Source: Gemmatimonadota bacterium
GTDB taxonomy: Bacteria > Gemmatimonadota > Gemmatimonadetes > Longimicrobiales > Gaopeijiaceae
Assembly: GCA_028873825.1 (NCBI GenBank)
Contig: JAPPNM010000156.1
Coordinates: 1-32,873, forward strand
Reading direction: 5' to 3'
Length of the DNA stretch: 32,873 bases
The number at the start of each line of letters is the position of its first letter. Position 1 is the first letter of the stretch. Positions 24,525-32,873 of the stretch are shown one piece after another. A program made the position numbers and the translations under genes. The notes beneath the pieces are model-generated. The model was given only the letters and a program-made list of their open reading frames with translations. It was not told the origin of the DNA and made no database searches.

Positions 24525-25736
24525 TTGAGCCGCGAGACGGAAGCCCGGGCGCGCAGGCCGGCGCCGAAGACGGGGACCGGCCCCCGGGGCGGCCGCGATA
24601 CGGAGCGCCGCCATGCGCTCGAGGTGTTTCCCAAGCGCGACATCACGATCGTGAAGGGGAGCGGGGCGGAGGTGTGGGACGACCGGGGGCGCCGCTACAT
24701 CGACTGCGTGGCCGGGATCGGAGTCGCGAGCGTGGGACACGCCAACCCGGCGGTGGCGAAGGCCCTCGCCGAGCAGGCTCGTACGCTCGTGACCTGTCCC
24801 GGGATCTTCTACAACGACGTGCGCGCGCGGCTGCTGGAAAAGCTGGCGTCGGTGGCCCCGCCGGGGCTGTCGCGCGGATTCCTCTGCAACTCGGGGGCCG
24901 AGGCGGTCGAAGCGGCGATCAAGTTCGCGCGCCTCGCCACGGGACGCACCGGGATCGTCTCCGCCGTGCGCGGCTTCCACGGCCGTACTCTGGGCGCGCT
25001 GTCCGCCACCTACAGGAAGGAGTACCGGGAGCCCTTCGAGCCCCTCGTGCCGGACTTCTCCTTCGCGCCCTTCAACAACCCCGGCAAGCTTCGGGAGGCC
25101 GTGGGCGTCGGCACGGCGGCGGTCCTGATCGAGCCGGTGCAGGGAGAGGGCGGGATCCGGCCGGCCGGGGCCGATTACCTGCTCGCCGCCCGAGAGATCT
25201 GCGACGAGACCGGGGCTCTGCTGGTCCTTGACGAGATACAGACCGGTTTCTGCCGAACCGGGCGCATGTTCGCGTGCGAACGCCACGGGGTGGTGCCCGA
25301 CATGCTCTGCCTGGCCAAGGGGATCGCCGGGGGCGTGCCGCTGGGCGCCGTTCTGGCGAACGACCGCATCCGGCCGCCGCCGGGCAGGCACGGCACGACC
25401 TTCGGCGGCAACCCGCTGGCGTGCGCGGCCGCGCTGGCCGCCATCGACTTCATGGAGGCGGAGCGGCTCGGCGAGCGCGCGGAGCAGCTGGGCGCGCGCT
25501 TCCGGGAGCGATTCGAAGCGCGGCTTCCGGCCAGGGTGCGCGCGGTGCGCCAGGTCGGACTCATGATCGGCGTAGAGCTTGGGGAGGCGTGCCGGCCGTA
25601 CATCGAGGCGCTGGCCGAACGGAGCGTGCTGGCGCTCGCGGCCGGGACTACGGTGATCCGGCTGCTGCCGCCTCTGGTGATCGCCGAGGAGCAGGTCGAC
25701 GAGGTGACGGAGGCGCTCGCGGGGGTGCTGGGGTGA
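24525..25736 (+). CDS. Class III aminotransferase of the LysJ/ArgD type
   Basis: A PLP-dependent omega-aminotransferase: the family transfers amino groups to N-acetylornithine semialdehyde (ArgD) or to LysW-bound aminoadipate semialdehyde (LysJ). The PLP lysine is K265 in LCLAKGIAGGVPLGAVL, with CNSGAEAVEAAIKFAR, FHGRTLGALSATY, LVLDEIQTGFCRTG and HGTTFGGNPLACAAALA also present. The C-terminal VLALAAGTTVIRLLPPLVI looks more like LysJ than the E. coli ArgD. Start TTG 24525 is uncertain: no Shine-Dalgarno sequence is seen and the first 25 residues are unconserved. No lysine or arginine genes flank it, so the role is not settled. Confidence 0.85.
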   Translation: MSRETEARARRPAPKTGTGPRGGRDTERRHALEVFPKRDITIVKGSGAEVWDDRGRRYIDCVAGIGVASVGHANPAVAKALAEQARTLVTCPGIFYNDVRARLLEKLASVAPPGLSRGFLCNSGAEAVEAAIKFARLATGRTGIVSAVRGFHGRTLGALSATYRKEYREPFEPLVPDFSFAPFNNPGKLREAVGVGTAAVLIEPVQGEGGIRPAGADYLLAAREICDETGALLVLDEIQTGFCRTGRMFACERHGVVPDMLCLAKGIAGGVPLGAVLANDRIRPPPGRHGTTFGGNPLACAAALAAIDFMEAERLGERAEQLGARFRERFEARLPARVRAVRQVGLMIGVELGEACRPYIEALAERSVLALAAGTTVIRLLPPLVIAEEQVDEVTEALAGVLG

Positions 25737-25918: not shown

Positions 25919-26005
25919 ATGGGCGGATGGGAGATTCGGCCGACCGCACGCGGGCGCGGCTCCCCATCCTCACGCAGGCCGCCTTCGACAAGGAACCGCA
26001 GGCAG

Positions 26006-27118
26006 ATGGCCACCGAGTCAAACGGACGGACGCTACATCGTCTCGACGAGCTGCCGCCGTTTCCCGAGGGATGGTATCTCGTCACCACCCGCGAGGCCCT
26101 TCGCGGGGAGAATCCGATCGAGAAGACCTGGCTGGGGGAGGAAATCGTCGCGTGGCGCGACCGGCGGGGCCGCGTTTGCGTGGCCGACGCGTACTGCCCG
26201 CACCTGGGGTCGCACATGGGACCGACCGTTGGCGGCATTGTGCGCGACGGCTGCCTGGTGTGCCCGTTCCACGGATTCGAATTCGACACCACCGGGAAGT
26301 GTGTCGCCACGCCCAACGCCCCGGCCCCCAAGGCCGCGAAGCTGAAGGTCTACGAGACCCGAGAGGTCCTCGGGATGGTATTCGCCTGGTGGGGGAGCGG
26401 CGGCCGGCCGGTCCAGTGGGAGTTGCCCGACGATCCCGCCACCGGGGCCCGTTGGAGCCGGCTGCGATCCTGCACCCTGCGGTTCCGGGGCCATCCGCAG
26501 GAGACCACCGAGAATTCTGTGGACGTGGAACACCTGGGCTACACGCACGGCTACGATGACGTGGAGCCGGCCGCCTCGCTGGCGATCGACGGCGCCTACC
26601 TGAAGAGTTGCTTCGACTTCACGAACGTTCGCAGAATCGCCGGGCTGGTGGACATCGTGTCAGAGATCTCGGCGGTCACCCACGTCCATGGGCTGGGCTA
26701 CTCGTTCGTCGAATTCCGCGAGAAGACGATCGGCATGGATGCGAGGTTGTGGGTGCTCTCGACACCCGTCGACGGCACGTCCGTCGAGCTGACGCTGGTC
26801 ACGCAGGTGCGGGAAATCCGCAAGCCGGGCCGATTCGTCACGGGTCTGGGGTTTCTCCCCGTGAGGCTGCGCCACAGGCTGATGAGCCGGCTTCTCCTGG
26901 CCGAAGAGAAGCGGTACGTCATGCAGGATGTTGTCATCTGGGAGCGGAAGCGGTACCGGTCGCCCCCACGGCTGTGCCGGACCGACGGCCCCATAGGGAA
27001 GTACCGCCTCTATTGTCGGCAGTTCTATCCGGAGCTCCGGTCCGCGGCACGGGGGCCGCTCCGGCGAGTCGGCCCGGAGACGCGTCTGGTGGCATCGGTG
27101 GGGAGAGACCGGAAATGA
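26006..27118 (+). CDS. Rieske non-heme iron oxygenase, DAF-36/Neverland-like
   Basis: A 370-residue oxygenase of the terminal Rieske type, resembling cholesterol 7-desaturases (DAF-36/Neverland) and 3-ketosteroid 9-alpha-hydroxylase KshA. The [2Fe-2S] ligands are C64, H66, C86 and H89 (CPHLGSHMG ... CPFHGFEF). The non-heme iron site begins at D173, H176 and H181 in ENSVDVEHLGYTHG. ATG 26006 is chosen for the AAGGA sequence (about 25990-25994); an upstream ATG at 25919 would add 29 unconserved residues. The stop overlaps a small ORF start (ATGA), and a P450 gene follows, so the two probably form one operon. Sterol substrate is inferred, not shown; a reductase partner is not in the window. Confidence 0.87.
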   Translation: MATESNGRTLHRLDELPPFPEGWYLVTTREALRGENPIEKTWLGEEIVAWRDRRGRVCVADAYCPHLGSHMGPTVGGIVRDGCLVCPFHGFEFDTTGKCVATPNAPAPKAAKLKVYETREVLGMVFAWWGSGGRPVQWELPDDPATGARWSRLRSCTLRFRGHPQETTENSVDVEHLGYTHGYDDVEPAASLAIDGAYLKSCFDFTNVRRIAGLVDIVSEISAVTHVHGLGYSFVEFREKTIGMDARLWVLSTPVDGTSVELTLVTQVREIRKPGRFVTGLGFLPVRLRHRLMSRLLLAEEKRYVMQDVVIWERKRYRSPPRLCRTDGPIGKYRLYCRQFYPELRSAARGPLRRVGPETRLVASVGRDRK

Positions 27119-27204
27119 AGTTCCGCGAATTCCCGCCAAGGGCGCCCGGGATGGAGATCGTGCAGAGGGAGCAAGACCGATGGCTGTTGCAACCGAAGGC
27201 GTGA
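27115..27204 (+). CDS. Candidate 29-residue peptide between the Rieske and GPP34-P450 genes
   Basis: ATG 27115 overlaps the Rieske stop as ATGA and runs to TGA 27204, overlapping the P450 start by 25 bases. It has a Shine-Dalgarno sequence (GGGAGAG, about 27101-27107) at good spacing. The product MKFREFPPRAPGMEIVQREQ then DRWLLQPKA has no recognised domain. It may be a real small protein, a coupling device for the P450 or a chance ORF. Confidence 0.3.
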   Translation: MKFREFPPRAPGMEIVQREQDRWLLQPKA

Positions 27205-29210
27205 CCACCCAGGCGCTGACCCTGCCCGAGGAGCTCGTCCTCATGCTCCTCAACGAGGAGAACGGCTACTTCCTCCAGGTGCCCGGCTGGCAGCTGAACT
27301 GCGCCGTGATGGGCGCGGTGCTCGCGGAGCTCTCGCTGCTGTCGCGCATCGACACGGACCTGGAGTCCCTCTACCTGGTGGACGCGACGGATACGGGCGA
27401 CCCCGCCCTCGATCCCGTTCTGGAAGAGATCGCGAACGAGCCGGTCCGGCGGAACGCCCAATACTGGGTCGAACGGCTCGCGCACCGCGCGGAATCGGTC
27501 ATCGACCTGACGCTGGACCGCCTCGTCAAGCTCAGGATCCTGGAGTACCACCACGGCGATTTCTGGACGGTGGCCGGTACGGTCTGGCACACGGAACTGT
27601 ACGGCGACACCGAGGAAAGCACCGCGGGGCAGTTCATCAAGACGCGTATCGGCAGGGCGATCTTCACCGACACGATCCCCGACCCGCGGGACGTCATCGT
27701 CATATGCCTCGTCAACACCTGCGACGCCTTTCGCTTCATATTCCAGCTCGACGCGGCGGCGGAGGAACGCATCGGGTTCATCTGCAAGATGGACCTGATC
27801 GGTCGTTCCATCGCCGCTGCGGTCCTGCACAACGTCGCCGTCCCGCTCCTTCGCCGCTCCCGCCTGACCAAGCACATTCCGCGTGTCGCGCTGCGCAAGC
27901 TGCTGGTCAATCGCCATGTCCGAAGCGGCAACCTCCCCGCGCTCTTTGCCGACCTGGCCAGGGAGTACGGGCCCGTCTACCAGATCCGTCCGCCGTTCGG
28001 GAAGCGCATGATCTTCATCGCCGGAACCGAGGCGAACCAGTGGGTCAACCGGCACGGACGCATGTACCTGAGGGCCAGGGACTATTTCGCCGACTTCGAG
28101 AAGGTCTACGGGGCGTCCGGTGTGCTTCCCTCCCTCGATGGCGCCGATCACTTCCGGCTGCGCAAGGCCCTGGCACCGGCGTATTCGCGGCGGAGGCTGG
28201 TGGACCAGATGGACCAGCTCCTCCACTTTGGCCGCAAGCACATGGGGGTGGAGTGGAAGGTCGGCGACACCGTGTCCGCCACGAGGCTGAGCCGGCGGAT
28301 GATCAACTCCCAGATCTCCCCGATGCTCGTCAGCGTCGAGTCGCAGGACATCTTCGACGACATGTCGAAGTACAAGGAGCGGGCGCTCAACGTCCACATC
28401 ACCGGGGCGCTACCCGAGTTCATGCTGAAGACGCCGGGCATGAAACGCCGGGCGAAGGCCGTCGACACGTTGCTGGGGCGGGTCCAGAGCGTGCATACGC
28501 CCGCGCAGCGGGCCGGATGCCCGCGGAATCTCGCCGACGACCTGCTGAGCCTGAACGCGAGCGACCCGCAGTTCGTGCCGGAGTCGAATCTGCGTTTCGC
28601 GCTGTCGGCGGCGCTGATCGCCAGCGTCTACCTCGGCGACGCGTTCAGCTTCGCGGTCTACGCCATGGCTTCGCGGCCCGATGACTACGCGCGAATCCGG
28701 GGCGAAGCCGACGAGCTGTTCGGCAACGGCGATCCGAAGGGCGAGGACTTCACGCCGGAGGCGATGGACTTCACGCACCGCTTCCTCATGGAGTGCCTGC
28801 GGATGTACCCGATCGTTCCGGTCTCCATGCGCACCGTGATGAACTCGTGCGTGGTCGAGGGCTACGAGCTGCCGGTGGGGGAGACTATCCTGATCGCCCA
28901 GACCGCCACGCACTATATGGACGACGTCTTCGCCGACCCGTTCACCTTCGATGTCGGTCGCTACCTGGCCCCGCGCCATGAGCACCGCGGCCCCGGGTAC
29001 GCGCCGTACGGGCTGGGCACGCACAGGTGTCTCGGCTTCCGGTGGATGGAGCTGCAGCTGGCGGTCAACGTTCTGATGGTCGCTCACTACTTTACGGTTG
29101 AGATCGCCCCGGCGAACTTCAGGTTCCGGTTCAATCCCTTCCCGTCGATGAAACCGAGCAAGAAGCTGAAGTTCCGCATCGCCGAGCAGGTGCGGGAGCT
29201 GCCGGTCTGA
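27180..29210 (+). CDS. GPP34 (GOLPH3-like) domain fused to cytochrome P450
   Basis: A 676-residue two-domain protein. Residues about 13-225 form a GPP34 domain aligning to human GOLPH3: LTLPEELVLML, GYFLQVPGWQLNCAVMGAVL, DTGDPALDPVLEEIA, YWVERLAHRAESVIDLTLDR and DPRDVIVICLVNTCDAFRFI. GPP34 proteins bind membrane phosphoinositides in eukaryotes; bacterial members have no assigned role. Residues about 240-660 are a cytochrome P450, with ExxR at E538-R541 and the heme loop YAPYGLGTHRCLG carrying C617. The I-helix lacks the usual acid-Thr pair: it reads GDA at 486-488. ATG 27180 follows a GAGGGAG sequence. The GPP34 part may tether the P450 to membranes. Substrate, perhaps a sterol, is inferred from neighbours. 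Confidence 0.88.
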   Translation: MAVATEGVTTQALTLPEELVLMLLNEENGYFLQVPGWQLNCAVMGAVLAELSLLSRIDTDLESLYLVDATDTGDPALDPVLEEIANEPVRRNAQYWVERLAHRAESVIDLTLDRLVKLRILEYHHGDFWTVAGTVWHTELYGDTEESTAGQFIKTRIGRAIFTDTIPDPRDVIVICLVNTCDAFRFIFQLDAAAEERIGFICKMDLIGRSIAAAVLHNVAVPLLRRSRLTKHIPRVALRKLLVNRHVRSGNLPALFADLAREYGPVYQIRPPFGKRMIFIAGTEANQWVNRHGRMYLRARDYFADFEKVYGASGVLPSLDGADHFRLRKALAPAYSRRRLVDQMDQLLHFGRKHMGVEWKVGDTVSATRLSRRMINSQISPMLVSVESQDIFDDMSKYKERALNVHITGALPEFMLKTPGMKRRAKAVDTLLGRVQSVHTPAQRAGCPRNLADDLLSLNASDPQFVPESNLRFALSAALIASVYLGDAFSFAVYAMASRPDDYARIRGEADELFGNGDPKGEDFTPEAMDFTHRFLMECLRMYPIVPVSMRTVMNSCVVEGYELPVGETILIAQTATHYMDDVFADPFTFDVGRYLAPRHEHRGPGYAPYGLGTHRCLGFRWMELQLAVNVLMVAHYFTVEIAPANFRFRFNPFPSMKPSKKLKFRIAEQVRELPV

Positions 29211-29437
29211 CGAGGTTCGGGGGCCCCCGCAATAGACCCCCACGGCAGTTCTGTGAAACAAGCACCGTTCCGCACCGCGAGTTTCAGTCCGCGGCGCGGC
29301 CGCTCGCGGCCATGGGAGATTCGAGTGGCGACGCATCCGGGTTGGACGCGCGCGGACTTTGTCCACGGGCTGCCGGGAGCCGCTTGCGCCGCAGCAGCGC
29401 AGCCTGCGTGAAGGGGCGAAGACAGGGAGACGGGCAG
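29211..29437. repeat. Spacer with dispersed repeat core (copy F) in inverted pair
   Basis: No gene is supported here. CCACGGGCTG (29363-29372), with GGACTTTGT before it, is the inverted repeat core seen at copies A and B. CAGTCCGCGG (29285-29294) is a second core in the opposite direction, 8 of 10 identical, with 68 bases between. A 6-bp hairpin GGCCGC-TC-GCGGCC lies at 29298-29311 and CGGGGCCCCCG at 29219-29229. This could be a small mobile-element-like unit with inverted ends. An ATG at 29312 is in frame with the downstream gene but lacks a ribosome-binding site. Confidence 0.4.
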
Positions 29438-30811
29438 GTGCCCCGGCGAATAGCAATCGTCGGCGGAGGCATATCGGGACTCGGCGCCGCGTGGGCGCTG
29501 AACCGCCACCCGGACCGGTTCGATTTCCGGCTCTTCGAGGCCCGGGGCCGGATCGGCGGGAATGCGGTGACGGCCGACATGCCCCAGGACGGCGGGGGTT
29601 CCATCCCCTTCGACATCTCCGTCACCGCCTGCATCCCGTCCGTGTACCACCACATCGTGCTGCTGATGGAGCGGCTCGGGATCGACTTGGTCGACACCCG
29701 GTTCAGCTACAGCGTGAAGTACCGGGGCCGGGTCTACGCCCACGACTTCGACTCCGGCATGCGGGACGAGCTGCAGTCCGAGATCGCGAAGTTCCAGCGG
29801 ATTCTAGGGCGTCTTCACCGGTTCGGCCGACTGACCCGTTCCCGGTCGAAGTTCCTGAATGCCCTCAACCCGTTCAACTACGTCAGCATGGGGACCGTTC
29901 TGAATCTGGCCGGATTGTCCGGGGACTTCAGGTACCAGGTGCTGAAGCCCATGTTCGTCAACTTCCTCATGGCGACCAACGTGTTCGACATGCCCGCGTC
30001 GCTCTTCTGCAGGTATCTCGAGTTCTTCGACATCGAGTCCGCCACCCCCATGCAGACGTGGGACCGGGGAACCAGGCGCATCTACGAGAACCTGACCGCC
30101 GGTTTCGGGGACCGGATTCATCTCAACCGGCCCGTGCGAAAGGTGTACCGGAAGCGGTCGCACGTCGTGGTCGAGGACGAGGACGGAGTGCGGGAGAGGT
30201 TCGACGACGTGATTCTCGCATGCAATGCGAACCAGACGCTGATGATCCTCGACCGGCCCACCATGCTCGAACGCTACATCCTCTCGTCGGTACGCTACGA
30301 GAGCGAGCTGCACAACCACGCGATCGTCCACTCCGACGCGTCGGTGCTTCCGGACAACGAAGCGAAGCCCGTGGCGACGCGGAGCAATCACATCGAACAG
30401 TACGGCTCTCGGCCGGACAACTACGAAATCACGTACATCATGCACAACCAGCAGCCTTGGGCGGGGCGGTCGGACAAGCCGTGTCTGGTAACCTACAACC
30501 CGGTCAGCCGGATCGACCCGGAGAGGACGGTCGGCCGGTGGTGGTTTCAGCATGTCGTCCATGACGTGCGCCACGTCGCGCTCCTCGTCCCCCTGTTCCG
30601 CGTCATTCAGGGCAGGAGGCGGACGTGGCACTGCGGCGCCCACACGCTGGTCAACAGCCAGGAGACCTGCTTCGTCAGCGGGCTCGCCGCGGCGAGGCAG
30701 CTCGGTTCGGACTACCCGTTCGACGACGCGGAAGCGCGCAGGTCATTCAACCACTACGGGAGCATCCTGCACGGATGGCGGTTCAGGAAGGTGCGCCCGG
30801 GGAAGCTGTAG
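29438..30811 (+). CDS. FAD-dependent amine-oxidase-family protein
   Basis: A 457-residue flavoprotein with the dinucleotide motif G9-x-G11-x-x-G14 (IAIVGGGISGLGAAWALNRH) and the second-strand Glu in FRLFEARGRIGG. It resembles the NAD(P)/FAD amine-oxidase-like proteins often encoded next to cyclopropane-fatty-acid synthase-like methyltransferases, whose function is still unproven. GTG 29438 has the best Shine-Dalgarno sequence (AGGGAG, 29424-29429); ATG 29312 would add 42 residues of low-complexity sequence. It follows the P450 on the same strand after a repeat-containing spacer and converges on the methyltransferase gene. It could act on a sterol or fatty acid, as a desaturase or reductase; the sequence does not decide. 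Confidence 0.8.
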   Translation: MPRRIAIVGGGISGLGAAWALNRHPDRFDFRLFEARGRIGGNAVTADMPQDGGGSIPFDISVTACIPSVYHHIVLLMERLGIDLVDTRFSYSVKYRGRVYAHDFDSGMRDELQSEIAKFQRILGRLHRFGRLTRSRSKFLNALNPFNYVSMGTVLNLAGLSGDFRYQVLKPMFVNFLMATNVFDMPASLFCRYLEFFDIESATPMQTWDRGTRRIYENLTAGFGDRIHLNRPVRKVYRKRSHVVVEDEDGVRERFDDVILACNANQTLMILDRPTMLERYILSSVRYESELHNHAIVHSDASVLPDNEAKPVATRSNHIEQYGSRPDNYEITYIMHNQQPWAGRSDKPCLVTYNPVSRIDPERTVGRWWFQHVVHDVRHVALLVPLFRVIQGRRRTWHCGAHTLVNSQETCFVSGLAAARQLGSDYPFDDAEARRSFNHYGSILHGWRFRKVRPGKL

Positions 30812-30861: not shown

Positions 30862-31884
30862 TCAGGCCCGAACGGGTTTACGGGCCAGGAAACAATACAG
30901 CGGCGTGAAGATGCCCGTCTTGCCGCCCGCGACATAGGCCTCCGCGGTTCGATCAAGGAGTCGAACGACCTCCGCCGAGCCGTTCGGAAAGAGCCGCAGT
31001 ACCTCGGCCAACTTCAACCCCGCGATGAGCGCCTTGCGGCCCCAGGGAAGCCTGCGCACCGCGTTCCCCAACGCCCCGTGGCGACTCGCCATGGGTTGAT
31101 ACCAAGGCGTGGAGGGTCCTTCCCGCACTTCCCAATCGCTCCCCTCGATGACCTGGAATCCCGCCCCTTCGAGAGCGTGATTCACTTCCCCGAACGTGGC
31201 GATGTCGTGCAGGGCGATACCCCGCATGAGGTGCCGGCGGTCCCGCGGGTCGAACCGGTCCGTCAGGCACATTTCCTGACCCCAAAACAGGGCGCCCGGC
31301 TTCAGTACGCGGAATATCTCCGCGAAAGCGCGTTGCTTGTTCTGTGCATGGCACGTCGACTCAATGGCGTAACCACGGTCGAAGGTGTCGGCCTCGATGG
31401 CGCTCATGTCCGCGAAGCTGCACTTCCTGAAATCGGTCATGTGATCCAGCCCCGCCTCGGCGTTCAACTTCTTGGCCTCCGCCAGCTGGATCTCGTTGAT
31501 GTTGATTCCCACGACCCTGACACCCCCCTCGCGGACGACGCGGCGCATGGGGCCGCCGATTCCACAACCGACGTCGACCACCTTCATGCCCTGTTGCAGC
31601 TCCAACTTGGAGATCATCGTCCGCTGGTGCCGGACCTTGGACTCCTTCAGACTCTCGTTAGGCGTGAGAGGCGCAAAATGAAGGGATTCGCCCCAGCCCC
31701 ACACCATGAAGCCATTGCAAAGCTCATAGTAGTCTCTGACCGTTTCCGCGTGGTCGTAGGTGCCCGCACCCGCAGCTTCCGATGCCGCCCGGTCAAGCCG
31801 GCCGCCAAGGTGCCGGACTCGACGGGCGACGCCCGATCCAGGGTGCGCATCTCTCAGCGCTTTCGACAGTTGGCCCAGTCGCAT
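30862..31884 (-). CDS. Sterol 24-C-methyltransferase-like SAM-dependent methyltransferase
   Basis: A 340-residue class I methyltransferase with the arrangement of ERG6/SMT enzymes that add a methyl to C24 of the sterol side chain. Conserved parts are YYELCNGFMVWGWGESLHF (52-70, the sterol-binding Region I), the SAM motif DVGCGIGGP (104-112), YAIESTCHA (172-180) and GQEMCLTDRFDP (202-213). ATG 31884 gives an N-terminus of about 45 residues before Region I, longer than some, and no clear Shine-Dalgarno sequence precedes it. Eleven bases upstream ends a short P450 remnant. Alternatives are other prenyl-lipid C-methyltransferases such as tocopherol or squalene types; the combined motifs favour SMT. 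Confidence 0.85.
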   Translation of the reverse strand: MRLGQLSKALRDAHPGSGVARRVRHLGGRLDRAASEAAGAGTYDHAETVRDYYELCNGFMVWGWGESLHFAPLTPNESLKESKVRHQRTMISKLELQQGMKVVDVGCGIGGPMRRVVREGGVRVVGININEIQLAEAKKLNAEAGLDHMTDFRKCSFADMSAIEADTFDRGYAIESTCHAQNKQRAFAEIFRVLKPGALFWGQEMCLTDRFDPRDRRHLMRGIALHDIATFGEVNHALEGAGFQVIEGSDWEVREGPSTPWYQPMASRHGALGNAVRRLPWGRKALIAGLKLAEVLRLFPNGSAEVVRLLDRTAEAYVAGGKTGIFTPLYCFLARKPVRA

Positions 31885-31895
31885 TCTGGTGCGGT

Positions 31896-31949
31896 TCAGG
31901 CGGGCAGCTCCCGCCGCTGCTCGGAGATGCGGAATTTCAGCTCATTCAT
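31896..31949 (-). pseudogene. Remnant of the C-terminus of a second P450 upstream of the methyltransferase
   Basis: The - strand frame reads MNELKFRISEQRRELPA then stop. The C-terminus of the GPP34-P450 at 27180-29210 is KKLKFRIAEQVRELPV then stop, so 11 of the last 15 residues are the same; over the last 46 bases about 40 are identical. An upstream Met aligns as well if three codons are deleted. No P450 body precedes it: the RND gene ends 30 bases upstream. The stop is 11 bases before the methyltransferase ATG, as in an operon. The best reading is that a paralogous P450 once sat there and was mostly deleted. Confidence 0.65.
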
Positions 31950-31979
31950 CGGCTCTCGCCTTGCCGCAGCCGCCGCGCA

Positions 31980-32873
31980 TCATCCGGCGCTCGCAGTCGA
32001 AGGATGCCGCGAAGGCGTCAAATGCAGATGTAACGCGCATAACGCCGGAACAACCATCATGAGTATAGCCGTGGTGAAGACAATGCCACAACCGAGCGAC
32101 GCGGCGAACGGTATCAGGAACTGGGCCTGAATGGCGCGCTCCAGGATCAGCGGCGTAAAGCCCAGGAACGTGGTCAGGGAAGTGAGCATGATCGGACGAA
32201 AGCGCCCCTTGGCGCCCTCGACGATCGCGGTCCCGGGCGGGACGCCTTCCCTGAGTTTCCGATCGATGAGATCGATCATGACCAGGGAATCGTTCACCAC
32301 CACACCGCTGAGACCGAAGATCCCCATAAAGGATATGGCGCTCAGGGTTACTCCCAGGATCCAGTGGCCCAGGATCACGCCGATGAACCCGAAGGGGATC
32401 ACGGCCATGACGATGAACGGCTTGGTGTATGAACGGAGGGGGATGGCGAGAAGAGCAAAGATCAGGATCAGGGCGACCGCGAACCCGCGGTACAGGGCGT
32501 CGATGGACTCCAGTTGTTGTTGCTGTTCGCCGCCGAACGCGTATGTCAGGTCCGGGTGCTCCGCCGTCAGGTCCGCGAGGATCGAACCGGCCAGGATCTG
32601 GTTGGCTTCGTCGCCGGAGATCACCGAGGCGTCCACGTCGGCGGTGACCGTGACGACGCGGTGGCCGTCCCTGCGCCGGAGGGCCGACGGCGACACGCCC
32701 ATGCCCAGCGAGGCCACGCCGATGATCGGCACCTTGTCGCCGCCCGGCGTACGGAGCAGGTAGCCTTCGATATCGGCAATCGAGTTCCGCTCTTCCGTGG
32801 GCAGCCGAACATAGGCTCGTACCTCTTCCCGGCCGCGCTGCACCCGGACGGCTTCTGCGCCGAAGAACGCGGC
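31980..32873 (-). CDS. RND family efflux transporter, C-terminal part (cut by window edge)
   Basis: The last 297 codons of an inner-membrane RND permease of the AcrB/MexB type; the frame stays open to the window end (AAFFGAEAVRVQRGREEVR). The periplasmic segment VRLPTEERNSIADIEGYLLR and the final transmembrane block are typical: FAVALILIFALLAIPLRSYT, PFGFIGVILGHWILG, GLSGVVVNDSLVMIDLIDRK, MLTSLTTFLGFTPLILE, and GIVFTTAILMMVVPALCAL. RND pumps use the proton gradient to export lipophilic compounds. The stop is near the P450 remnant, showing a rearrangement boundary. The substrate is unknown. Confidence 0.9.
   Translation of the reverse strand, partial: AAFFGAEAVRVQRGREEVRAYVRLPTEERNSIADIEGYLLRTPGGDKVPIIGVASLGMGVSPSALRRRDGHRVVTVTADVDASVISGDEANQILAGSILADLTAEHPDLTYAFGGEQQQQLESIDALYRGFAVALILIFALLAIPLRSYTKPFIVMAVIPFGFIGVILGHWILGVTLSAISFMGIFGLSGVVVNDSLVMIDLIDRKLREGVPPGTAIVEGAKGRFRPIMLTSLTTFLGFTPLILERAIQAQFLIPFAASLGCGIVFTTAILMMVVPALCALHLHLTPSRHPSTASAG

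What the first reader, a model, noticed from the sequence alone, without database searches (positions are those of the whole stretch)
27180..29210. GPP34 (GOLPH3-like) domain fused to a cytochrome P450 in one protein
Seen directly: one uninterrupted frame with strong GPP34 segments (LTLPEELVLML, DTGDPALDPVLEEI, YWVERL, DPRDVIVICL) followed by a P450 with ExxR (538-541) and a Cys617 heme loop. GOLPH3 reads membrane phosphoinositides in eukaryotes; bacterial GPP34 proteins are orphans. I know of no described GPP34-P450 fusion. Inference: the GPP34 part tethers the P450 to a membrane or to lipid droplets, giving it access to a membrane sterol.
Basis: partly seen in the sequence, partly recalled or inferred. 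Interest (0 to 1): 0.88.

Follow-up and report, generated by a model that had tools for sequence, protein, structure and literature searches.

The report
GOLPH3-like P450 in symbiont sterol clusters
Bacteria of several phyla, apparently mostly sponge symbionts, share a gene fusing a Golgi-type lipid-binding domain to an unusual cytochrome P450, usually beside sterol-altering genes, so they may remodel sterols, possibly their host's.

Summary
The fusion is real: one 676-aa frame (27180-29210 +) with GPP34 (95 bits) and P450 (107 bits); models and structure searches support both folds. It is no singleton: 58 loci from MAGs titled as nine phyla encode it, mostly at 60-85% identity. In 27 carriers outside the window's group it is 44-76% identical, RpoA only 30-43%, so it has moved horizontally. 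Neighbours recur in shuffled order: Rieske oxygenase (44 of 58), RND transporter (42), sterol methyltransferase (32), FAD amine-oxidase-like enzyme (28). In all four Nitrospirota loci it lies 2-13 kb from an oxidosqualene cyclase; the one annotated in full is a sterol operon with its own CYP51-like P450. The window's genome has no cyclase match and 43 of 50 carriers show no DCTAE cyclase, so most probably use foreign, perhaps host, sterols. Two corrections: GOLPH3's PI(4)P-pocket residues are not conserved, so phosphoinositide reading is unsupported; and the P450 I-helix has Val-Tyr instead of an acid-Thr pair, unlike four of five paralogues checked. Best reading: a membrane-associated sterol-tailoring enzyme of an inter-phylum module. 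Substrate and reaction are untested.

The parts
27180..29210 (+). GPP34-cytochrome P450 fusion, 676 aa
27222..27782 (+). GPP34 (GOLPH3-like) domain, aa 15-201; PI(4)P pocket residues not conserved
27924..29117 (+). cytochrome P450 domain, aa 249-646
28620..28640 (+). I-helix stretch A481-S-V-Y484-L-G-D487; Val-Tyr in place of the acid-Thr pair
28791..28802 (+). ExxR motif, E538-R541
29028..29030 (+). heme-ligand Cys617 codon
25919..27118 (+). Rieske oxygenase with KshA_C domain (true start perhaps Met31, about 26009); Rieske CxH/CxxH and NxxDxxHxxxxH iron motifs (motifs recalled) visible in the sequence
   Evidence: recurring neighbour
29312..30811 (+). FAD-dependent amine-oxidase-superfamily protein, nearest solved relative LkcE
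   Evidence: recurring neighbour
30862..31884 (-). sterol C-24 methyltransferase homologue (CMAS/Methyltransf_11 plus Sterol_MT_C)
   Evidence: recurring neighbour
31980..32873 (-). C-terminal part of an RND transporter (AcrB type, cut by the end of the window)
   Evidence: recurring neighbour

Best explanation
The protein is a peripheral-membrane sterol-tailoring P450. The GPP34 domain (GOLPH3 fold without the PI(4)P-site residues) serves as a lipid-surface or protein-docking module that holds the P450 at the membrane where sterols reside (inferred). The P450, whose I-helix acid-Thr pair is replaced by Val-Tyr, carries out a specialised reaction on a sterol (inferred). The Rieske oxygenase, the FAD enzyme and, where present, the SMT add further changes to the same molecule, and the RND transporter moves it (inferred). 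The module is exchanged between phyla (shown by identity against RpoA), apparently among sponge and coral symbionts (mostly recalled from record names). Most carriers show no oxidosqualene cyclase and so would act on sterols taken from the host or neighbours (inferred).
For: Both domains and folds. Neighbourhood: Rieske 44, SMT 32, FAD 28, RND 42 of 58 loci; in the 36 loci with at least 5 kb on both sides 32, 21, 21 and 29. Comparison: 0 of 6 loci around paralogous fusions (L071-L075, L077; L074 and L077 end soon after the gene) show a Rieske, FAD or SMT relative; one shows an RND1 relative. Sterol link: Sterol_MT_C in the window's SMT and over cut-off in 55 of 74 genomes searched, 0 of 14 control genomes; sterol-sensing hits in the representatives of two of three transporter types; in L099 the fusion and FAD genes lie beside SQMO-OSC, a P450 with a CYP51-like I-helix, ERG24, SdmA-like (405 bits) and SdmB-like (295 bits) genes. 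The four Nitrospirota loci have fusion and DCTAE cyclase on one contig, about 2.2, 4.8, 5.6 and 12.7 kb apart, measured to the cyclase-domain match. Transfer: fusion 44-76% against RpoA 30-43% in 27 genomes. No cyclase match in the window's genome; 2 of 23 genomes of the genus over cut-off.
Against: No substrate or product is known. The PI(4)P-pocket residues are absent, so lipid binding by this GPP34 is only an analogy. 8 of 58 loci show none of Rieske, FAD or SMT at the thresholds used: L013 (8 kb on both sides, transporter only), L069 (only fragments), and six cut by contig ends. 19 of 74 genomes searched show no Sterol_MT_C, among them the Longimicrobiales chromosomes G040 and G045 and the Nitrospirales G043 with the sterol operon. 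No background rate of these partners, or of common RND transporters, near random genes was computed. The window's transporter is AcrB type, without a sterol-sensing hit. The SdmA and SdmB matches in L099 are below their curated cut-offs of 600 bits, as is the window's Rieske (37 bits). The Rieske carries a KshA-type C-terminal domain, so a catabolic role is thinkable. Missing OSC in draft genomes can be a gap. AU tests on the fusion tree do not reject one clade for Gemmatimonadota (p 0.275) or Chloroflexota (p 0.064).
Confidence: 0.58

Rival explanations
1. Steroid catabolism: the Rieske enzyme is a KshA-like 9alpha-hydroxylase and the P450 starts degradation of host sterols as a carbon source.
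For: KshA_C domain and KshA as nearest solved relative of the Rieske protein; KshA homologues, including a sponge-only cluster, are reported from sponge MAGs (PMC5790920, passages).
Against: The HsaC-type ring-cleavage family TIGR03213 is over cut-off in 1 of 68 carrier genomes searched (some listed twice); 15 of 68 have any match, best below cut-off 286 bits outside G084; 0 of 18 of the window's genus match. No control genome passed the cut-off, so sensitivity to distant HsaC is not calibrated. The cluster often holds an SMT and in Nitrospirota lies near a biosynthetic cyclase. A 3-ketosteroid dehydrogenase was not searched for.
Confidence: 0.1
2. The substrate is another polycyclic or long-chain lipid (hopanoid, carotenoid, modified fatty acid) and the SMT homologue has changed substrate.
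For: Only 7 of 50 carrier genomes have a DCTAE-type (oxidosqualene) cyclase; 11 of 50 have a DxDDTA (hopene-type) cyclase (motif meanings recalled). LkcE, nearest to the FAD enzyme, acts on a polyketide-type molecule (activity recalled). 19 of 74 genomes show no Sterol_MT_C.
Against: 29 of 50 carriers have no cyclase match at all, hopene type included. Sterol_MT_C in most, sterol-sensing-domain transporters, and a DCTAE cyclase near the fusion in the four Nitrospirota loci.
Confidence: 0.18
3. The GPP34 part is a protein-docking or oligomerisation module that assembles the Rieske, FAD and SMT enzymes or a redox partner, rather than a membrane tether.
For: PI(4)P-pocket residues lost; another invariant set remains (R56, D78, W96, R156, P167, R170, C181), and R156, P169, R170, D171 and C181 are kept in the one standalone bacterial GPP34 checked (L078). 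Vps74 may form tetramers (PMC3760917, passage).
Against: No partner interface was tested; GOLPH3 is a peripheral membrane protein (PMC8468827, abstract start; PMC4414131, passages). Both roles may hold at once.
Confidence: 0.3
4. The P450 is not an oxygen-activating monooxygenase but an isomerase, dehydratase, peroxygenase or non-catalytic sterol-binding heme protein.
For: The acid-Thr pair is Val-Tyr in the window; Tyr484 in 45 of 46 aligned rows (the other is the paralogue), while ExxR and Cys are invariant. Four of five paralogous fusions keep a Thr there.
Against: Some P450 monooxygenases work without this Thr (recalled). The geometry of Tyr484 relative to the heme was not computed.
Confidence: 0.35

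Closest known systems
GOLPH3/Vps74 (GPP34, PF05719)
   Same: Pfam domain and fold; profile hit to GOLPH3 3kn1 E 1.3e-9; Foldseek TM-score up to 0.74
   Different: fused to a P450; bacterial; PI(4)P-pocket residues not conserved
P450s nearest by sequence or fold: CYP51 (Methylococcus), CYP184A1, taxadiene 5-alpha hydroxylase, CYP120
   Same: P450 fold; these lead the PDB lists
   Different: about 20% identity in the structure matches; I-helix SVY instead of a Thr-containing motif; N-terminal GPP34
Clusters of steroid genes (CSG) of Ircinia symbionts, Kelly 2022, PMC9531527 (passages)
   Same: sterol genes in 10 phyla of sponge symbionts, exchanged horizontally, SMT or FDFT1 at the 3' edge; L099 has an ERG24, P450 and cyclase run like the CSG core beside the fusion
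   Different: the passages name ERG24, CYP51, ERG7, DFR, SMT; 'golgi' has 0 hits and 'rieske' 0 in the main text. 43 of 50 fusion carriers show no DCTAE cyclase (3 of them with an unassigned one)
Functional bacterial SMTs of sponge symbionts, Brown 2023, PMC10070321 (parts 1-2 of 7 read, rest by search terms)
   Same: SMT homologues in symbiont clusters with sdmA/sdmB
   Different: 0 hits for 'rieske', 'cytochrome p450', 'golgi', 'golph' in the main text; supplements not read
msb sterol cluster of a Melophlus gammaproteobacterium, PMC7074536 (passages)
   Same: bifunctional squalene epoxidase/cyclase, sterol reductase, Rieske and NAD(P) oxidoreductase, SMT, as in L099
   Different: no GPP34-P450 mentioned in the passages
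BstA sterol transporter of Methylococcus, PMC10942540 (passages)
   Same: RND/MMPL transporter beside sterol genes, like RND2 and RND3 here
   Different: orthology not tested; the window's own transporter is AcrB type

Membership tests
GPP34 (PF05719) | Pfam score over the gathering cut-off | tested here: met
   95 against 29.1 bits
GPP34 (PF05719) | GOLPH3 fold | tested here: met
   8 of 8 PDB matches at E <= 0.001 are GOLPH3/Vps74 chains
GOLPH3-type PI(4)P effector | pocket residues W81, R90, R171, R174 | tested here: not met
   most frequent residues printed for 46 rows: at R90 V/I/A/M/G, at R171 E/D/P/S/G, at R174 I/V/S/N/A, at W81 P/V/H/R; no Arg at the three Arg positions and no Trp at the fourth. 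By the alignment; W37 (45 of 46) lies two residues on and might replace W81. The standalone L078 has an Arg at the R174 position
GOLPH3-type PI(4)P effector | binds membranes | not testable with these tools
   needs liposome assay
Cytochrome P450 | Pfam PF00067, ExxR, Cys heme loop | tested here: met
Cytochrome P450 monooxygenase | I-helix acid-alcohol pair (D/E-T; motif recalled) | tested here: not met
   Val483-Tyr484; Tyr in 45 of 46
CYP51 | CYP51-like I-helix (A/G-G-x-H-T; recalled) and closeness to CYP51 | tested here: not met
   SVYLGD; 19% identity to three standalone P450s of sterol operons that carry AGQHTS
Sterol 24-C-methyltransferase (30862-31884 -) | methyltransferase core plus Sterol_MT_C | tested here: met
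   PF08498 59 bits against 21.7
Sterol 24-C-methyltransferase (30862-31884 -) | activity on a sterol side chain | not testable with these tools
   needs enzyme assay
SdmA 4-methylsterol monooxygenase (25919-27118 +) | NF052579 cut-off 600 bits | tested here: not met
   36.9 bits; it is a KshA_C-type Rieske oxygenase
KshA 3-ketosteroid 9alpha-hydroxylase (25919-27118 +) | KshA_C domain (Pfam) | tested here: met
   74.4 against 23.3 bits; the domain alone does not fix the substrate
Clusters of steroid genes (Kelly 2022) | ERG24-CYP51-ERG7 core | tested here: not met
   no cyclase match in the window's genome. L099, the one locus annotated in full, has such a core beside the fusion

The most novel reading that the evidence does not exclude
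Sponge and coral symbionts of many phyla share a mobile sterol-remodelling module whose key enzyme is a GPP34-anchored P450 with a Tyr-based I-helix. Because most carriers cannot make sterols, they import, alkylate, oxidise or rearrange and re-export the host's sterols, so that some of the odd sterols of sponges, including those used as molecular fossils, are joint host-symbiont products.
Probability: 0.38. Interest if true: 0.86.

Novelty: new variant of a known kind. Interest (0 to 1): 0.67.

Why it matters
Bacterial sterol genes in sponge symbionts are known, but tailoring enzymes beyond SMT, CYP51, ERG24 and SdmAB were not named in the papers seen. This gives a concrete, widely shared candidate set (GPP34-P450, Rieske, FAD enzyme, SMT, transporter) whose products can be tested by expression, and it bears on who makes unusual sponge sterols, which matters for reading fossil steranes. 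It also gives bacterial GPP34 domains, for which the papers listed by these searches describe no function, a testable setting: a domain joined to an enzyme whose substrate probably sits in the membrane.

Tried and rejected
Considered that the fusion P450 is the CYP51 of the known sterol clusters: rejected (19% identity; a separate standalone P450 with a CYP51-like I-helix in L099). Considered a one-off gene fusion or assembly error: rejected. Considered binning contamination as the cause of the phylum spread: the fusion also lies in chromosome-scale records OX638356.1 and OX639991.1 (Longimicrobiales), OX638353.1 and OX638324.1 (Dehalococcoidia) and OX638322.1 (Binatia), and RpoA is only 30-43% identical in 27 of 28 genomes compared. 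One title is wrong, however: L063, called Gammaproteobacteria, is the same genome as G442 of the window's family (same coordinates; RpoA 62%).

First ORF clustering mixed in antisense frames of this GC-rich DNA and was replaced. In plasmids no record of 208 covers 80% of the query, and the ten listed match the P450 part only. A literature search for MAG names gave one irrelevant paper. The Palauibacterales paper PMC10469786 (term search) has no 'sterol', 'steroid', 'p450' or 'rieske' in its main text. The careful tree did not finish; the quick tree is used. AU tests rejected nothing (quick LG+G4 tree, four long rows left out, mislabelled L063 counted as Pseudomonadota), so transfer is argued from identity against RpoA, not from the tree. 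Four cyclase matches (G058, G048, G084 and a second one in G044) show neither the DCTAE nor the DxDDTA motif by pattern and stay unassigned.

Full report
The observation. The frame 27180-29210 (+) is a single 676-aa protein. Pfam finds GPP34 at aa 15-201 (95 bits, cut-off 29.1) and P450 at aa 249-646 (106.6 bits, cut-off 22.8). A full-length AlphaFold2 model (46-row alignment, mean pLDDT 85.2, pTM 0.82) shows two mostly well-predicted domains with a low-confidence N-terminus and two weak loops; the 50 PDB matches listed are P450s, among them CYP184A1 and Methylococcus CYP51. The GPP34 part modelled alone matches GOLPH3 and Vps74 chains and nothing else at E <= 0.001.

How common it is. In 40 relatives, 32 have some match; of the 23 genomes of the genus, window included, 19 hold a close copy (53% identity or more; those of G017 and G007 are partial). 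In 395 genomes sampled from the phylum, 46 match at E <= 1e-40, in 7 of 138 genera, one of them (g20, G148) with a GPP34-only match. A scan of the genome collection (84,980 species by its description) with six short peptide patterns gave 75 stretches, of which 58 encode a relative. Most of the 58 are full length at 60-85% identity; L061, L065 and L069 are at 42-44%, and L064, L067, L068, L070 among others are cut by contig ends. By title the MAGs are Gemmatimonadota, Nitrospirota, Chloroflexota, Pseudomonadota, Binatota, Actinomycetota, Latescibacterota, Bdellovibrionota and Myxococcota, and 5 bear no phylum. The epithets rhopaloidicola (L045) and poriticola (L057) point to a sponge and a coral; that the isolate prefixes (SB06, RHO, COS, Plut and others) are sponge or coral surveys is recalled, and a search for them in print failed.

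Transfer between phyla. I compared 28 of the 50 carrier genomes, chosen from those not titled Gemmatimonadota. In 27 of them RpoA is 30-43% identical to the window's and the fusion 44-76%: 25 at 61% or more, G085 and G088 at 45 and 44. One of the 27, G055, bears no phylum name. The 28th, G087 (L063), gave RpoA 62% and proved to be a mislabelled relative of the window. The aminotransferase at 24525-25736, a gene beside the cluster, gave 36-45% as best match in 26 of the 28, and 65% and 58% in G066 and G061. A tailoring P450 far more alike than an RNA polymerase subunit has not come down by vertical descent alone. The quick tree mixes phyla (13 label changes against a minimum of 7, shuffled mean 25.3; L063's wrong label is in that count). 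AU tests do not reject a single clade for Gemmatimonadota or Chloroflexota, so the direction and number of transfers are open.

The neighbourhood. Clustering of ORFs in the 58 loci shows the same partners in changing order and orientation. By tblastn: Rieske 44 of 58, SMT 32, FAD enzyme 28, an RND transporter 42; at least one of Rieske, FAD and SMT in 50, at least two in 40. In the 36 loci with 5 kb or more on both sides these are 32, 21, 21, 29, 34 and 30. The two of 36 without any are L013 (transporter only) and L069 (fragments only). The transporters are of three types: AcrB-like (RND1) and two MMPL types whose representatives have sterol-sensing-domain hits, one also a Patched hit. The window has all four partners, its transporter being an AcrB-type fragment at the window's end. 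The same contig carries SecY, RpoA and SecA, so the cluster is chromosomal. In six loci around paralogous fusions (L071-L075, L077; two of them end soon after the gene) no Rieske, FAD or SMT relative was found, and one RND1 relative. No background rate near random genes was computed.

Why sterols. The SMT has the Sterol_MT_C domain; that family is over cut-off in 55 of 74 genomes searched and in 0 of 14 control genomes, but 19 of 74 lack it, among them the chromosomes G040 and G045 and the Nitrospirales G043 (some genomes are listed twice). In L099 (G043, same contig as L016) the fusion and FAD genes are followed by a squalene epoxidase-oxidosqualene cyclase fusion, a P450, an ERG4/ERG24, an SdmA-like and an SdmB-like gene (the last two below NCBIfam cut-offs). 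The four Nitrospirota loci have fusion and DCTAE cyclase on one contig, about 2.2, 4.8, 5.6 and 12.7 kb apart (coordinates; motif). In the other three carriers with a DCTAE cyclase (G051, G066, G085) the two lie on different contigs. The P450s of three sterol operons (L094, L098, L099) have the stretch AGQHTS and only 19% identity to the fusion's P450, so the fusion is an extra enzyme and not the CYP51.

De novo or acquired. The cyclase family TIGR01787 gives no match in the window's genome (93% complete) and is over cut-off in 2 of 23 genomes of the genus, with partial matches in two more, one of which (G018) bears DCTAE. Of 50 carrier genomes (for 50 of the 58 loci), 18 are over cut-off, 3 have only weak matches and 29 none. 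By motif, 7 of 50 hold a DCTAE (oxidosqualene) cyclase in frames of 1,143-1,413 aa and 11 a DxDDTA (hopene-type) one, three having both; in G058, G048 and G084 the type is unassigned. G040 and G045, chromosome-scale assemblies, have no match. Most carriers therefore probably act on sterols made by others. Degradation is less likely: the ring-cleavage family TIGR03213 passes its cut-off in 1 of 68 genomes, has any match in 15 of 68 and none in the 18 of the genus, with the reservation that no control genome passed either.

The two domains, looked at closely. A profile of bacterial GPP34 domains finds human GOLPH3 at E 1.3e-9. In that alignment the PI(4)P residues W81, R90, R171, R174 (PMC4414131, figure legend) fall on P35, V/I/A44, E/D105 and I/V108. 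Phosphoinositide reading is thus not supported. Other residues (R56, D78, W96, R156, R170, C181) are invariant, and those of them checked in one standalone GPP34 of the same genome (R156, R170, C181) are kept there too. In the P450, the I-helix reads A-S-V-Y-L-G-D where a D/E-T pair is usual (recalled); Tyr484 is present in 45 of 46 rows and Asp487 in 42. Of five paralogous fusions, four keep a Thr (GLDT in three, two of which are 90% identical; GLHT in one) and the fifth reads QALDP. The change is therefore likely derived within the sterol-cluster clade, and points to unusual oxygen chemistry or none.

Reading. Shown: architecture, folds, recurrence across phyla, excess identity over RpoA, recurring partners, closeness to an oxidosqualene cyclase in four Nitrospirota loci, loss of the PI(4)P-pocket and acid-Thr residues. 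Inferred: sterol substrate, membrane or docking role of GPP34, host origin of the sterol, order of the steps.

What is known. Sterol gene clusters in sponge symbionts and their transfer (PMC9531527, passages; PMC7074536, passages), functional symbiont SMTs (PMC10070321, parts 1-2 of 7 and term searches) and a bacterial sterol RND transporter (PMC10942540, passages) are published. Searches for GPP34 or GOLPH3 with P450 (15 of 5,442 listed; 4 of 4), for GPP34 (30 of 90 listed), for sponge sterol clusters with Rieske and P450 (8 of 8) and for eukaryotic-like proteins with Golgi phosphoprotein in sponge symbionts (10 of 19 listed) showed no description of this fusion. Only open-licence papers are held, and supplements could not be read here.

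Noticed in passing
L060:3294-5258; L071:7073-9007; L072:5462-7399; L073:7996-9951; L074:8004-9923: A second, more distant family of GPP34-P450 fusions (about 30-37% identity to the window's); four of these five keep a Thr in the I-helix, and no Rieske/FAD/SMT relative lies near the four in L071-L074. The architecture is thus wider than the sterol cluster.
   Followed up: partly
L078:2872-3498 (window's own genome, contig C179): A standalone GPP34 protein, 39-40% identical to the fused domain, in the same genome; GPP34-only matches of this kind occur in each of the 23 genomes of the genus (the one in G019 with two TAG inside).
   Followed up: partly
L063: Record titled Gammaproteobacteria (RHO1_bin_70) is the same genome as G442, of the window's own family: title label wrong.
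   Followed up: yes
L094-L102: Frames of 1,130-1,413 aa with a DCTAE cyclase in Nitrospirota, proteobacterial (by title) and two same-genus genomes; L094, L095, L097 and L098 have a second SMT type (SMT_b) near it. Squalene epoxidase plus cyclase domains confirmed by Pfam only in L099.
   Followed up: partly
window 30862-32843 and 27180-29210 against L012, L043, L044, L045, L047, L050, L057, L066: Mosaic cluster: the window's SMT (87-90%) and transporter (85-96%) are most like those of these loci, while its fusion is only 63-65% like theirs and 85% like L013/L015, suggesting gene replacement inside the cluster.
   Followed up: no
L051, L052: Two tandem copies of the fusion (about 60% identical to the window's each) followed by FAD and Rieske genes on the other strand; L051 is titled Acidimicrobiia, L052 has no phylum assigned.
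   Followed up: no
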